Shown here piece after piece: positions 14,448 to 34,088 of a stretch of 64,000 nt of DNA. The stretch lies in contig NZ_JAOTIF010000001.1 in assembly GCF_025628885.1 (NCBI RefSeq), positions 558,001-622,000 of the forward strand, given 5' to 3'. Position 1 is the stretch's first letter; each line of letters opens with the position of its first letter. This DNA is from Paraflavisolibacter caeni. GTDB lineage: Bacteria; Bacteroidota; Bacteroidia; Chitinophagales; Chitinophagaceae. The notes below the pieces were generated by a model. The model searched no databases. It saw only the letters and a program-made list of their open reading frames with translations, and was not told the DNA's origin. Both the position numbers and the translations under genes were made by a program.

Positions 14448-14489
14448 ACTCATCAATAACTAATAATCAATCATCTATCATCAGTCATC
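14448..14489. repeat. 7-bp-period array next to a clpP stop codon
   Basis: Six consecutive heptamers with no indel: actcatc, aataact, aataatc, aatcatc, tatcatc, agtcatc. The consensus is AATCATC (GATGATT on the clpP strand). The array ends 4 bp from the clpP stop codon. Confidence 0.75.
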
Positions 14490-14493
14490 TCTC

Positions 14494-18176: not shown

Positions 18177-20417
18177 ATGGAGACTGTCGCGCAAAAGCCT
18201 AAATATAATTTGAATGAAGAGCAGGAAAAGAAACTGATCCTGAGGGAGTATCGTGCCCTGCAGCGTGCCCTGAAGTCCCGTGCTAAGTCCGGCGACCGGA
18301 AATTGATACGTCATGCTTTTGAAATGGCCGCCGATGCGCACAAAAGTATGCGTCGCAAAAGTGGCGAGCCTTATATCCTGCATCCGCTGGCTGTAGCTCG
18401 AATTTGTGTGGAAGAAATCGGTTTGGGTATCCGTTCTACTATTTGCTCCCTTTTACACGATACTGTAGAAGATACTGATATATCCCTCGATGATATTCAA
18501 CGCGAGTTTGGTAGCGAGATCGCTAAAATTGTGGACGGCTTGACCAAGATTTCGAACGTAATTGATGTCAATGCCTCACAACAAGCCGAAAATTTTAAAA
18601 AGATTCTCTTAACCCTTACGGATGATCCAAGGGTTATTTTGATAAAACTGGCCGACCGCCTGCACAATATGCGCACGCTCGATAGCATGAAGCATGAAAA
18701 GCAGTTGAAGATTTCTTCCGAAACCGTTTATGTATATGCTCCCCTGGCACACCGCATGGGGTTGTATAATATGAAGACGGAAATGGAAGACCTGGCCATG
18801 AAGTACCTGGAGCCGGATACCTATAAGGAAATCGCCCGTAAGCTGGCCGAGACCAAAAGGGAGAGGACCCGCTACATCAACGAATTTATCAAGCCCCTCA
18901 AGGATAGCCTGGATAAGGAAGAGATGAATTTCGAAATATACGGGCGCCCGAAAAGCATCCATTCCATCTGGAATAAAATGAAAAAGAAAGGCGTGTCCTT
19001 CGAAGAAGTATACGACCTCTTCGCTATCCGTATTATTTTGAATTCTCCTCAGGAAAAAGAAAAAGAGGACTGCTGGAAGGTGTATTCGATGATTACAGAC
19101 CAATACAACCCTTCTCCTGAGCGTCTGCGCGACTGGTTGAGCAATCCAAAGAGCAATGGTTATGAGGCGTTGCATACGACTGTAATGGGCCCACAGGGCA
19201 AGTGGGTAGAAGTGCAGATCCGGACAAGACGTATGAATGAAATCGCCGAAAAAGGACTTGCCGCTCACTGGAAATACAAAGAAGGTACCCACAACGAAAA
19301 CCGTTTTGATAAATGGTTTACCCAGATCCGGGAAGTCATCACCAACCAGGATGTTGACTCTGTCGACTTTCTGCAGGACTTCAAGCGTAGCTTCCTTGCC
19401 GAGGAAATTTATGTCTACACTCCTAAGGGCGACGTCAAAATGCTGCCCATCGGTGCTACCGCGCTCGACTTTGCATTTTTAGTGCACAGTGAGGTCGGAG
19501 CTAAATGTATCGGTGCTAAGGTTAACCACAAGCTGGTGCCTATCAGCCACAAACTGCGCAGCGGTGACCAGGTGGAGATCATTTCTTCCAACAAGCAAAA
19601 GCCTTCCGAAGACTGGTTGAATTTCGTGGTAACCGCCAAGGCTCGTACCAAGATTAAGGACGCCCTGAAGGAAGAAAAGAAGGCAGTGGCCGAGGAAGGA
19701 AAATATACACTCCAGCGCAAGCTCGAGGGGATAGGAGCTACCTTCAATCACCATAATATCGATGAGCTGATCAGCTGGTATAAAGTAAACTCCGGTCTCG
19801 AACTTTATTACCAGATCGCAATAAAAAATATCGATCTCAAAGACTTAAAGGAATTCAAGGTCATTGGCGATAGGCTGGAAGCACCTAAGCCAGTAGTGAA
19901 ACATATCGAACCTAAATCGGAAATTATCCATCCGGCCCTTCCAAAGAAGGATGCTGAACTGGTGATCTTTGGCGAAAGCAGCGATAAGATCATGTACAAC
20001 TTGGCCAATTGTTGCAAACCCATCCCAGGCGATGATGTATTTGGCTTTGTAACCACAGGCAAAGGCTTGACCATTCACCGCACCTCCTGTCCCAATGCTA
20101 CCAAGCTGATGTCCAACTACGGGCACCGCATTGTCAAAACGAAGTGGGCTAAGAACAAGGAAATATCATTCCTCACCGGCCTTAGGATTGTTGGTATGGA
20201 TGACGTTGGTATCATTAACAAAATTACCAATGTGATCAGTGGAGATATGGGCCTCAATATTTCCGCCCTGACGATTGAATCAAAAGAAGGTATTTTCTCG
20301 GGTAGTATCAAGCTATTTGTTCATGACAAAGAAGAACTGGATGAACTGGTAATCAGCCTCAAAGACCTGAAAGGCATCCACTCTGTCGACCGCTTCGATG
20401 CAGAAGCAAACGCTTAA
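18177..20417 (+). CDS. Bifunctional (p)ppGpp synthetase/hydrolase (Rel/SpoT)
   Basis: This 746-aa enzyme controls the stringent response by making and degrading (p)ppGpp. The hydrolase HD domain is intact, with His55 and His94-Asp95 in LLHDTVED. The synthetase domain has YGRPKSIHSIWNKM and EVYDLFAIRII. The TGS domain (EEIYVYTPKGDVKMLPIGA) lies near residue 410, followed by a helical and zinc-finger-like region (NLANCCKPIPGDDVFGFVT). A C-terminal ACT domain (LRIVGMDDVGIINKI) occupies about 665-746. Both activities should be present because both active sites are conserved. It is monocistronic, with a terminator 50 bp after the stop. Confidence 0.96.
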   Translation: METVAQKPKYNLNEEQEKKLILREYRALQRALKSRAKSGDRKLIRHAFEMAADAHKSMRRKSGEPYILHPLAVARICVEEIGLGIRSTICSLLHDTVEDTDISLDDIQREFGSEIAKIVDGLTKISNVIDVNASQQAENFKKILLTLTDDPRVILIKLADRLHNMRTLDSMKHEKQLKISSETVYVYAPLAHRMGLYNMKTEMEDLAMKYLEPDTYKEIARKLAETKRERTRYINEFIKPLKDSLDKEEMNFEIYGRPKSIHSIWNKMKKKGVSFEEVYDLFAIRIILNSPQEKEKEDCWKVYSMITDQYNPSPERLRDWLSNPKSNGYEALHTTVMGPQGKWVEVQIRTRRMNEIAEKGLAAHWKYKEGTHNENRFDKWFTQIREVITNQDVDSVDFLQDFKRSFLAEEIYVYTPKGDVKMLPIGATALDFAFLVHSEVGAKCIGAKVNHKLVPISHKLRSGDQVEIISSNKQKPSEDWLNFVVTAKARTKIKDALKEEKKAVAEEGKYTLQRKLEGIGATFNHHNIDELISWYKVNSGLELYYQIAIKNIDLKDLKEFKVIGDRLEAPKPVVKHIEPKSEIIHPALPKKDAELVIFGESSDKIMYNLANCCKPIPGDDVFGFVTTGKGLTIHRTSCPNATKLMSNYGHRIVKTKWAKNKEISFLTGLRIVGMDDVGIINKITNVISGDMGLNISALTIESKEGIFSGSIKLFVHDKEELDELVISLKDLKGIHSVDRFDAEANA

Positions 20418-20467
20418 ATGATTAATAGAAAAATAAAAGTTCAATCAAGTCTATCTCATAACAATTC

Positions 20468-20500
20468 AACCCCATCTTACAACAATCGGATGGGGTTTAT
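20468..20500 (+). terminator. Intrinsic terminator after the Rel/SpoT gene
   Basis: A 9-bp stem (AACCCCATC at 20468-20476, complement at 20489-20497) closes a 12-nt loop and is followed by a short T-rich tract. Confidence 0.75.
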
Positions 20501-20590
20501 TATTTCAATAGTCAAAACCATCTCCTTCAGGCAAATCTGACCGCTTTTGCCTGTTTATCCTCCTAAAATCAACTCATCCTTCGTAGATCA

Positions 20591-20700
20591 AGTATACCTG
20601 AAGCATACCATCAGTATACCTAAAGTAGGGCTACAGTATTCCTGCTGTATCCCTGGAGTATAGTTGAAGCATACCTGAAGCATACTAACAGCATACCTGA
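20591..20700. repeat. 11-bp-period array A1, ten units
   Basis: Ten consecutive 11-mers with no insertion or deletion; the consensus is AGYATACCTGA. Three units read AGYATACCTGA exactly (20591, 20668, 20690), and others differ at 1-6 positions (for example agtagggctac at 20624). The last unit runs into the 31-bp block shared with 30136-30166. No gene overlaps it. Confidence 0.85.
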
Positions 20701-20723
20701 AGCACGAAACAGATTTTGACCCC
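20693..20723 (+). repeat. 31-bp dispersed repeat, copy 1
   Basis: This 31-bp block is identical to the reverse complement of 30136-30166. It begins inside an 11-mer unit (ATACCTGA) and ends in a run of Cs. Confidence 0.9.
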
Positions 20724-20754
20724 CTAATCCCCAACTCATCCCTGAACCATACTT

Positions 20755-20864
20755 ACTCCCTACCTACTCCGTACCTAAGCCGTACCATAGCCGTACATCA
20801 GCCGTATCTAAGCCGATGCTACTTCGACTATCCTTCGACCATCTTTCGACTCTGCTTCGATCTG
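20755..20864. repeat. 11-bp-period array A2, ten units
   Basis: Ten consecutive 11-mers with no indel. The first six follow a CCGTACCT-type word (actccgtacct, aagccgtacca, tagccgtacat). The last four switch to a TTCGAC-type word (acttcgactat, ccttcgaccat, ctttcgactct). The period stays at 11 across the change. It is one base out of phase with array A1. Confidence 0.85.
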
Positions 20865-20964
20865 AATTGAGCAAATGCTCATAAATAAGGGGAAAACAAC
20901 CTACAGGCAGAACGCCCAAAAAGCCCTGAACGGAGTCAAGGGAACTGCGCCTAAAGGTACAAAA

Positions 20965-21115
20965 CCAACCCCCACCCTCCAAGTTTTGAACCCCCTCCCT
21001 TTACACTTCCTTTTATTCGTTATTCCCAACGTTACCTGGTTCTTCCCAAACTTTGAACTTCAACCCGCTAACTTCACCCTCAAAACTGAGATTTCCCCTA
21101 CTTTTGCCACTCAAT
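20965..21115. repeat. 7-bp-period array before purA
   Basis: This pyrimidine-rich heptamer array is clearest at 21045-21093: cccaaac, tttgaac, ttcaacc, cgctaac, ttcaccc, tcaaaac, tgagatt, with AAC at the end of most units. It extends loosely back to about 20965. It occupies the purA leader and shows that the open frame upstream of the purA start is not coding. Confidence 0.65.
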
Positions 21116-21129
21116 TTAATAACTCCTCT

Positions 21130-22398
21130 ATGGTTGATGTTATACTGGGTCTTCAATGGGGCGATGAAGGCAAGGGTAAAATAGTAGATTATTTCGCATC
21201 TCAATACGATGTAATTGCTCGTTTCCAGGGCGGTCCTAATGCTGGTCACACGCTTTATGTGGGTGACAAAAAGATAGTGCTTCACCAGATTCCTTCTGGT
21301 GTATTCCACCAGGGTACTGTAAATCTGATCGGAAATGGTGTGGTATTGGATCCGGTAACCCTCCGTCGCGAGGCTGAAACCGTAGCAGCTTTCGGTGTTG
21401 ACCTCCGCAAGAACCTTTTTATTTCTGAGCGCACCAATTTGATCCTGCCTACACACCGTGCATTGGATAAAGCTGCTGAAATGGCTAAAGGCAATGAAAA
21501 GATCGGTTCTACTTTAAAAGGTATTGGACCTGCCTATATGGATAAAACGGGCCGTAACGCTTTGCGTGTAGGTGACTTGTTGCATAAAAGCTTTACAACG
21601 TCTTATATCAAGCTGCGCCTGAAGCACCAAAAGCTTCTGGACAATTACAACTTTACAGAAGATCTTACTGCCTGGGAAGAAGAATTCCTGGATGCTATTG
21701 AATTCTTGCGCAGCCTGAATATTGTAAACGGCGAATACTTTATCAATAATAAGATCAGCGAGGGCAAAAAAGTACTGGCCGAAGGTGCACAAGGAAGCAT
21801 GCTGGATATCGACTTCGGTACTTTCCCGTTTGTAACTTCTTCCAACACAATTTCTGCCGGAGTGTGCAATGGATTAGGTGTTGCCCCACAGAAAATCAAA
21901 GAAGTTTTCGGTGTATCCAAAGCATATTGTACAAGGGTAGGTAGCGGTCCTTTCCCAACAGAATTGGAAGATGAAACTGGTGAGCAATTGCGCAAGATTG
22001 GTCATGAGTTTGGTGCTACTACCGGAAGACCTCGTCGTTGCGGTTGGATGGATCTGGTAGCCCTGCAATATGCCTGCATGATCAATGGCGTTACTCAGGT
22101 GATCATGACCAAAGCTGACGTTCTTGATGCTTTTAGCGACCTGTCTGTTTGTACATCTTATAAGATCAACGGGAAAGAAGATACTCAGGTGCCATTCCAA
22201 ATGACCTGGAACAAAATCGAACCTGTTTACCAAAGCTTTAAGGGCTGGAATACTGATACAACAGGAATCAAAGAGTCTAATGCTCTGCCTCAGGAAATGA
22301 AGAATTATGTCGCTTTCTTAAATGAAAAATTGGGAGTGCCCATTAGCTACATCTCCAATGGACCTGGTCGTGATCAGTTAATTAAAGTAAATAAATAA
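21130..22398 (+). CDS. purA: Adenylosuccinate synthetase
   Basis: This 422-aa enzyme links IMP and aspartate, using GTP, in the first committed step of AMP synthesis. The GTP-binding signature GLQWGDEGKGK lies at residues 7-17, followed by RFQGGPNAGHT. Other signatures are KGIGPAYMDKTGR, LAEGAQGSMLDIDFGTFPFVTSS and the C-terminal ISNGPGRDQLI. I chose the ATG at 21130 (MVDVILGLQWG), which matches the family N-terminus. The frame stays open to 20875, but that part is repeat array and would add 85 unrelated residues. Confidence 0.96.
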   Translation: MVDVILGLQWGDEGKGKIVDYFASQYDVIARFQGGPNAGHTLYVGDKKIVLHQIPSGVFHQGTVNLIGNGVVLDPVTLRREAETVAAFGVDLRKNLFISERTNLILPTHRALDKAAEMAKGNEKIGSTLKGIGPAYMDKTGRNALRVGDLLHKSFTTSYIKLRLKHQKLLDNYNFTEDLTAWEEEFLDAIEFLRSLNIVNGEYFINNKISEGKKVLAEGAQGSMLDIDFGTFPFVTSSNTISAGVCNGLGVAPQKIKEVFGVSKAYCTRVGSGPFPTELEDETGEQLRKIGHEFGATTGRPRRCGWMDLVALQYACMINGVTQVIMTKADVLDAFSDLSVCTSYKINGKEDTQVPFQMTWNKIEPVYQSFKGWNTDTTGIKESNALPQEMKNYVAFLNEKLGVPISYISNGPGRDQLIKVNK

Positions 22399-29901: not shown

Positions 29902-30135
29902 TTAATCGGTTTTGAAAAATTGTTTGTTCTTATATAGTTAAAAATAATACATACTGCTGAAAAGCAGTAGGTTGGCGAAGATACAAAGTCTGTTCAATGA
30001 TAGGAAAGGAATTCATACCCTAGAGCATAAAGAGGGGCGTCCTGGTGCCTGAACGGAATTGTTGCTGCACTTTAAGAGGGGAGATATTGGATATTGGGAT
30101 AATAGGATGTAGGGGTATAAGTTAGGGTTAAGAGA

Positions 30136-30166
30136 GGGGTCAAAATCTGTTTCGTGCTTCAGGTAT
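30136..30166 (-). repeat. 31-bp dispersed repeat, copy 2
   Basis: This block is the exact reverse complement of 20693-20723. It passes directly into the 11-bp array that follows. Confidence 0.9.
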
Positions 30167-30378
30167 ACTGTAAGTATGCTTCAGCTATACTGAAGGTATG
30201 GGTGGGTTGGATAAGGGGATAGTAGGGCGTAGGTATATGGTAGATACGGGGTTGATCCGGAGTAGTAGAGGAGTGGTCGAGGAGGATGTAGTTAGCATGT
30301 ACGGCTAATGTTTACTATAACTCTACTATAAGTTTACTATAACTTTACTGTAAGTTTTCTATAAGATTACTATAAGGC
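30159..30378. repeat. 11-bp-period array B1, twenty units
   Basis: Twenty 11-bp units can be laid end to end without an indel. The first four (tcaggtatact, gtaagtatgct, tcagctatact, gaaggtatggg) are the reverse complement of the AGYATACCTGA type. A degenerate middle keeps GTAG/GTAT-like words in phase. The last six (30312-30377) follow TTACTATAAST, for example ttactataact, ctactataagt, ttactataact. Confidence 0.82.
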
Positions 30379-30385
30379 ATATTAG

Positions 30386-30490
30386 GAATGACGAATGGAG
30401 GGAGGGAAGATGATAGAAGGTAGGTGGTAGATGAGAGATGATAGAGGGTAGAGAGGATTTAAGTTTTTGAGGTTTGGGGTTTGGAGTGAA
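30386..30490. repeat. 7-bp-period array after the 11-bp array
   Basis: Fifteen heptamers without an indel: gaatgac, gaatgga, gggaggg, aagatga, tagaagg, taggtgg, tagatga, gagatga, tagaggg, tagagag, gatttaa, gtttttg, aggtttg, gggtttg, gagtgaa. The word changes from TAGANGG-like to GGTTTG-like without losing the period. Confidence 0.75.
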
Positions 30491-34025: not shown

Positions 34026-34088
34026 GATATTGGGATTTCGGAATTTTGAGGTTTGGAGTTTGAAGTTTGGAGTTTGAGGTTTGGAGTG
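34026..34088. repeat. 7-bp-period array upstream of pheT
   Basis: Nine heptamers without indels. The last six (34047-34088) are tgaggtt, tggagtt, tgaagtt, tggagtt, tgaggtt, tggagtg, consensus TGRRGTT. The three before them (gatattg, ggatttc, ggaattt) are looser. Confidence 0.75.

What the first reader, a model, noticed from the sequence alone, without database searches (positions are those of the whole stretch)
20591..20864. Strict 11-bp-period arrays whose unit sequence changes but period does not
Seen: ten 11-mers of the AGYATACCTGA type (20591-20700) and ten more (20755-20864) that start as CCGTACCT words and switch to TTCGAC words, with no indel inside either block. Units differ by several bases, yet the spacing stays exact. 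Simple slippage repeats would drift in length as well as sequence. Inference: local amplification followed by substitution under a no-indel constraint, or a protein/RNA that reads an 11-bp ruler (close to one DNA turn, and equal to one A-form RNA turn). I know of no named element that fits.
Basis: partly seen in the sequence, partly recalled or inferred. Interest (0 to 1): 0.78.

Follow-up and report, generated by a model that had tools for sequence, protein, structure and literature searches.

The report
Dispersed 11-base arrays resembling protein operators
The two 11-base arrays are real and belong to a repeat scattered through this bacterium's genome, whose arrays elsewhere sit in front of a many-copy gene of unknown function and look like a row of landing sites for a protein that binds once per turn of DNA.

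Summary
In detail: 64/99 and 68/99 bases match at lag 11; 0 of 2000 shuffles reach the observed score. The arrays belong to a mosaic intergenic repeat of about 490 bp (20538-21030) between relA/spoT and purA, with 43 places in my slices. Between copies, indels in the arrays are mostly whole 11-bp units, so there is no 'no-indel' constraint. Some relatives have 11-bp arrays with other words. In this genome 16 of 17 tested genes of a 22-copy family (MKQ) have such an array upstream, against 20 of 646 other genes. Elsewhere in the class, 11-bp arrays lie in front of a small HTH-like gene that faces another gene (MAKQ): one core three times at spacing 11 in 11 of 48 loci, at nine other spacings in 0, in controls 1 of 1198; but in 0 of the 9 own-genome loci. 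The layout resembles Cox/Apl/Xis/BldC operators. Best reading: operator-like arrays, gained and lost by whole units, dispersed with or without an amplified gene; the window copy has no such gene. Binding is inferred. G017 has arrays but no detected HTH gene. Neutral tandem repeats in a mobile module remain the main rival.

The parts
20538..21030 (.). Whole dispersed mosaic repeat (window copy)
   Evidence: Own-genome blastn pieces begin at about 20538 or 20575 and end at about 20995 or 21025
20538..20590 (.). Head; in other copies a roughly 10-bp-period stretch (GACCGCTTTTGTCCGC) followed by ATCCTTCGT
   Evidence: the same stretch lies before MKQ and MAKQ genes
20591..20700 (.). Array A, ten 11-mers of the type AGYATACCTGA
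   Evidence: 64 of 99 at lag 11
20701..20754 (.). Linker with AGCACGAAACAGATTTTG
   Evidence: Shared with other copies
20755..20820 (.). Array B, 11-mers with GCCGTACCTAA
20821..20864 (.). Array C, 11-mers with CTTCGACYATC; 2 to 7 units in 33 copies
20865..21030 (.). Core, the most conserved part; on the minus strand it holds TAYCTTTA, one base off the Bacteroidetes -7 box TAnnTTTG (recalled)
30114..30376 (.). Second array region: a partial copy (30114-30191) and other 11-bp words (30310-30376)
18177..20417 (+). relA/spoT-family gene (left neighbour)
   Evidence: TIGR00691, E 4e-192
21133..22398 (+). purA (right neighbour); TACTTTTG at 21099 may be its -7 box
   Evidence: NF002223 and TIGR00184 above cut-off; position

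Best explanation
[quoted passage not shown] Shown: the repeat is scattered through this genome; array length differs between copies mostly by whole units; in this species an array lies upstream of nearly every tested gene of a 22-copy family; some other genomes have 11-bp arrays with other words; in the class, 11-bp-spaced cores lie just upstream of a small HTH-like gene that faces the MAKQ gene. Inferred: a small DNA-binding protein working like Cox, Apl, Xis or BldC binds head to tail, one protomer per unit, and controls the neighbouring genes; gain and loss of whole units keeps the phase while the words drift. The window copy is a solo one: it lies between relA and purA, with no MKQ, MAKQ or HTH gene in the window.
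For: Dispersed repeat, 43 places. Unit-sized indels. Period 11 and not 12: strict TACC pattern 71 matches here, 67 in G017, 18, 18 and 10 in G273, G177 and G113; the period-12 pattern gives 1-4 in those genomes. Arrays upstream of 16 of 17 MKQ genes and of 13 of 29 MAKQ genes found by protein search, against 20 of 646 controls. Three cores at spacing 11 before 11 of 48 HTH genes, 0 of 48 at spacings 7-10 and 12-16, controls 1 of 1198. Marivirga plasmid: the same gene order, lag 11 the best of lags 5-20 before the HTH gene. Eight of 13 HTH members match the Cox-like PHROG 575 weakly. Published mode: direct repeats one turn apart, cooperative, repressing two facing promoters (PMC7498355, passages).
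Against: No binding data. The HTH genes of this genome do not fit: 0 of the 9 own loci are among the 11 with the motif, and G017 has arrays but no HTH hit. Of the window units only A resembles the HTH-linked unit (8 of 11, p 0.011, one of eight units tried); B and C do not. 37 of 48 HTH loci lack the strict motif, and the Marivirga array has only two strict cores. Slices of 80 kb each from G016 and G004 have no true lag-11 array. The profile of the HTH gene finds no Cox or Xis structure in the PDB (best E 0.081). In G229 the strict pattern is no more common than its reversed control, 9 against 14.
Confidence: 0.5

Rival explanations
1. Neutral minisatellite: a mobile or recombining intergenic module contains tandem 11-bp repeats that grow and shrink by slippage or unequal exchange, with no binding role. 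The link with MKQ and MAKQ genes arises because gene and upstream region were amplified together in each lineage.
For: Unit-sized gaps are what slippage gives; copies are mosaic and many are solo; 7-bp arrays are also frequent; homologous units in G003 and in this genome run from the array to beyond the gene, as expected of co-amplification.
Against: Words differ between species while the period stays 11, and 11-bp-spaced cores stand before HTH genes in several families of the class, where the flanks are not copies of one repeat.
Confidence: 0.3
2. RNA element: the purine-rich strand is transcribed from a promoter in the core and the 11-nt units act in the RNA (one A-form turn).
For: In G229, 11 of 18 loci have TTG-N17-23-TAnnTTTG beside the array, by my reading of the positions; in G017, 17 of 20 array-side genes run with that strand, p 0.003.
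Against: In 43 own places the full motif occurs only outside the repeat, in 4 of them; own orientation is 26 of 42, p 0.16; Rfam finds nothing (best E 0.72). No structure or covariation test was made.
Confidence: 0.07
3. DNA shape: helically phased flexible or curved steps (TA, GTATAC) wrap or bend DNA for a nucleoid protein without base-specific reading.
For: Period close to one turn; many units have TATA or GTAC cores.
Against: Array C and the second G017 array lack such steps; arrays are tied to particular genes.
Confidence: 0.07

Closest known systems
Operators of winged-HTH recombination directionality factors and regulators (phage 186 Apl, P2 Cox, lambda Xis; also BldC and RdfS)
   Same: Direct repeats about one helix turn apart (10-11 bp for Apl, five and seven sites), one between two facing promoters; small HTH protein. 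Seen in passages of PMC7498355 and PMC11963761.
   Different: Here tens of dispersed copies with changing words; array next to an HTH gene only in part of the loci; similarity of the HTH family to Cox is weak; no binding shown.
BOX-type interspersed repeats of pneumococcus
   Same: Modular intergenic repeats with a variable number of an inner unit (recalled; only the listing of PMC3049150 was seen).
   Different: No sequence comparison was made; here the inner unit is 11 bp and the full unit stands before an amplified gene.
TAACTGA and other heptamer direct repeats
   Same: Short direct repeats in intergenic DNA, also in some Bacteroidetes (abstract of PMC4679880); 7-bp arrays occur here too.
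   Different: Period 7, one fixed word there; here period 11 with several words.
parC centromere of plasmid R1 (ParR sites)
   Same: Clusters of 11-bp direct repeats (recalled).
   Different: Chromosomal, tens of copies; parM and parR were not searched for.

Membership tests
Cox/Apl/Xis/BldC-type operator array | Direct repeats at one-turn spacing | tested here: met
   Exact 11-bp spacing in the window; 11 of 48 HTH loci at spacing 11, 0 of 48 at nine other spacings
Cox/Apl/Xis/BldC-type operator array | A small HTH gene of this kind beside the array | tested here: inconclusive
   Met at many class loci; not in the window; G017 has no hit; PHROG 575 match weak, 8 of 13 at E up to 0.1; no related structure found
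Cox/Apl/Xis/BldC-type operator array | Cooperative head-to-tail binding and bending | not testable with these tools
   Needs protein and DNA
Non-autonomous mobile element (MITE-like) | Dispersed copies with common ends | tested here: inconclusive
   43 places, but mosaic with several left and right ends
Non-autonomous mobile element (MITE-like) | Terminal inverted repeats and target-site duplication | not tested
   Flanks were printed; no search was run and no close strain with an empty site was at hand
Known structured RNA | Match to an Rfam model | tested here: not met
   20400-21200, only one hit, E 0.72, below its cut-off
parC/ParR segregation site | ParR and ParM genes beside the repeats | not tested
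   No search was made

The most novel reading that the evidence does not exclude
An array-and-protein system shared across Bacteroidia: a small HTH protein that builds a helical filament on 11-bp site arrays, whose spacing is fixed but whose words turn over between species, and which has been amplified with lineage-specific gene families into tens of chromosomal places, making a genome-wide network of helix-phased binding arrays.
Probability: 0.2. Interest if true: 0.85.

Novelty: new variant of a known kind. Interest (0 to 1): 0.6.

Why it matters
If right, a strict 11-bp period in otherwise drifting intergenic DNA is a readable mark of a protein that binds once per helix turn. It would let such operators be found without knowing their words, would tie unnamed many-copy gene families (MKQ, MAKQ) to a candidate regulator, and would offer natural arrays of varied length and word for testing how head-to-tail binding tolerates change.

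Tried and rejected
Upstream of purA in ten public loci (L051-L060): no such array seen; in L055 and L056 a relA-like ORF (by eye) ends 87 and 117 bp before purA, against 715 bp here. Recurrent neighbour genes of the 43 places, ORFs of 300 bases or more: clusters of at most 4. Variable-gap TACC pattern in 294 family genomes: background too high to read the period; replaced by strict period-11 and period-12 patterns in 14 genomes, most of them picked from that list. Shared genes at arrays between this genome and G017: 7 blastp rows, among them one AtpD-like and one primase-like pair, no common set. Preference for upstream regions: 1 of 42 placed copies is between convergent genes, but only 22 of 193 spacers over 250 bp are convergent, so the bias is modest. 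MAKQ model: pLDDT 74.6, helical first part and a beta sandwich, no convincing PDB match. MKQ model: pLDDT 43.9, not used. MKQ and MAKQ profiles do not match; the G003/G017 MAKQ set matches the class set over 95 columns, E 6.8e-19. Curated families: no accepted Pfam or NCBIfam hit for the MAKQ, MKQ and HTH proteins scanned; one sub-threshold hit of a MAKQ member to a toxin middle domain (E 0.063) is taken as chance. Phage records: no MKQ, MAKQ or HTH match; viral contigs: 401 candidates for MAKQ, none confirmed. Plasmids: one record for MAKQ and HTH, the Marivirga plasmid. Papers: no paper held all terms in the searches for 11-bp tandem repeats with Chitinophaga or Bacteroidetes and intergenic; two wider searches listed 9 papers and 1 paper, none on such arrays by title and abstract start. 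Open-licence papers only.

Full report
Place. The window is C1:558001-622000 of a 7,014,184-base genome in 89 contigs. The nearest PurA proteins in the species collection are 76-79% identical, most from MAGs named Chitinophagaceae; records of the window's own genome may be left out there. The arrays lie in the 715-bp spacer between a relA/spoT-family gene and purA.

The observation. 64 of 99 and 68 of 99 positions match at lag 11. The best 99-base window scores 71; 0 of 2000 shuffles reach it, best 51. Units are in register.

A dispersed repeat. The spacer gives 70 matches in the own genome at E up to 10, the weakest of them chance. In the window and 40 own slices, most of them chosen around these matches (822,641 bases), blastn gives 60 pieces, merged to 43 places, two of them in the window. 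Module order on the plus strand: head, array A, linker, array B, array C, core; copies are full, partial or solo. The 493-bp repeat matches 3 of 18 genus genomes and 4 of 294 family genomes, this genome counted in both; the others are short pieces of 33-50 bp. Of the six loci behind those pieces five have a lag-11 group; the G016 one has only about three units and is below the threshold.

How arrays change. In 33 copies array C has 2 to 7 units: 4 in 12, 5 in 10, 3 in 7, 7 in 2, 6 in 1 and 2 in 1. Pairwise gaps in the array part: 11 in 447 cases, 22 in 81, 1 in 65, 4 in 50; in the core: 1 in 590, 2 in 118, 3 in 87. Pairs are not independent and the core has homopolymer runs, so I read only that array indels are mostly unit-sized.

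Other genomes. In unselected own slices lags 7 and 11 and their multiples stand out. Of the relatives sliced, G017, G229 and G088 have lag-11 arrays, but some of those slices were chosen around them; G004 (80 kb) has none, and the one in G016 (80 kb) is a run of N. Strict period-11 TACC pattern, 14 chosen genomes: 71 here, 67 in G017, 18 in G273, 18 in G177, 10 in G113, 9 in G229, 1 in G240, 0 in the other seven; reversed control 0-5 except G229 (14) and G088 (10), so G229 shows no excess by this pattern. Period-12 pattern: 1-4 except G191 (16). Words differ: TACCTGAAGCATACC here, TACCTAGTCTGTACC in G017. G229 has a dispersed family of its own with arrays, 18 matches.

Genes at arrays. In 8 of 20 G017 array loci a neighbour belongs to one family, here called MAKQ. 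A protein search finds 31 matches in G017, 13 in G003 and 6 here; 8 of 18 genus genomes have it. Over 45 MAKQ or MKQ genes, lag 11 reaches 26/44 in the 700 bp upstream of 26; lag 10 in 12, lag 7 in 15, lag 12 in 0; among 646 other genes lag 11 in 20, lag 10 in 2, lag 7 in 34, lag 12 in 7. Many of the 45 were found through arrays; of 29 MAKQ genes found by protein search, 13 have an array, by my recount, p 3e-11. A second family here, MKQ (about 200 aa, first 140 conserved, end variable), has 26 matches in this genome, 22 of them near full length. Of 18 loci held, one lacks upstream sequence; of the other 17, 16 have an array, and the last (L404) scores 25 at lag 11 and 27 at lag 12. From the array side: of 20 further own loci, 19 have the pattern and 16 of these have an MKQ gene, two of them cut short, starting 133-149 bp from the pattern. 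L022 (the same place as L401) has core, arrays C, B, A and head directly before its MKQ gene, with another linker than the window. MKQ, MAKQ and HTH queries find nothing in the window at E up to 0.1, so the window copy is solo.

The class-wide locus. The MAKQ profile matches 39 of 295 class genomes. In 28 of 29 loci a gene start was found; 8 have lag 11 at 26/44 or more within 700 bp upstream, lag 12 in 1; two of the 8 (L319, L322) have other words and places. Facing MAKQ there is often a 62-68 aa HTH-like gene, and the best lag-11 stretch falls close to its start, for instance L302, L315, L305, L301, L303 and L294; in L299 and L304, where the best array is far from MAKQ, it lies at the start of the HTH gene. 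In this genome's L266, L273 and L275 it lies at the other end of the HTH gene. The HTH profile matches 42 of 395 class genomes and 7 of 18 genus genomes, with 9 matches here and none in G017. Over 48 loci [GC][CT]AT[AG] occurs three times at spacing 11 in 11, at spacings 7-10 and 12-16 in 0; controls 1 of 1198; none of the 11 is from this genome, of 9 own loci tested. The motif was first seen in part of these loci, so the other spacings are the fair control. By lag score alone: 19/33 or more in 15 of 48, controls 3.6% of 1180.

A named example. The Marivirga plasmid NZ_CP129969.1 has the HTH gene (WP_302123281.1), MAKQ (not annotated), a DUF5675 protein and a small protein like the one after MAKQ here. 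Before the HTH gene lag 11 is the best of lags 5-20 (18/33); only two strict cores stand in row, the third unit begins TTATG.

Mechanism. Eight of 13 HTH members match PHROG 575, Cox-like excisionase and repressor, at E up to 0.1, best 0.0016, over some 23 residues; no structure in the PDB is matched. Apl of phage 186 binds five and seven direct repeats with 10-11 bp spacing, cooperatively, and represses two facing promoters; the mode is given for Xis and others (PMC7498355, passages). RdfS, Cox and BldC form filaments on DNA (PMC11963761, passages). The class locus would fit this. That the window arrays are read so is inference: unit A resembles the HTH-linked unit (8 of 11, p 0.011, one of eight tried), B and C do not.

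Verdict. The arrays are real and part of something wider: an 11-bp spacing kept while words change, tied to particular genes. I think operator-like arrays likeliest (0.5); neutral unit repeats in a co-amplified module are the main rival (0.3).

Noticed in passing
window 14450-14490, 30402-30452, 34041-34087: 7-bp-period arrays; lag 7 is the second period in excess in own intergenic DNA, and 7-mers often follow the core of the repeat.
   Followed up: partly
L265, L278-L288 (G003): Upstream of MAKQ genes a roughly 10-bp-period stretch (CGGTCAAATCGGCCAAAAG) and, in several, a near-palindromic 11-bp array; MAKQ units there end in a 7-bp array.
   Followed up: partly
L154 and L152 (G088): Dyad-symmetric 11-bp array around TTCGGATCGATCCGAA.
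   Followed up: no
L409 (Marivirga plasmid) and L266, L273, L275: Conserved order HTH, MAKQ, small membrane protein; function unknown.
   Followed up: partly
A3 and A4 proteins: MKQ in this genome and MAKQ in G017 have a conserved first part and a variable end.
   Followed up: no
L195-L212 (G229): Promoter-like TTG-N17-23-TAnnTTTG beside the arrays in 11 of 18 loci, by my reading.
   Followed up: partly
L055: Record titled Williamsia sp. has a PurA 73% identical to this Bacteroidota one and a relA-like gene beside it; the title is probably wrong.
   Followed up: no
window 20400-21130: Strong negative GC skew over the spacer, down to -0.46.
   Followed up: no
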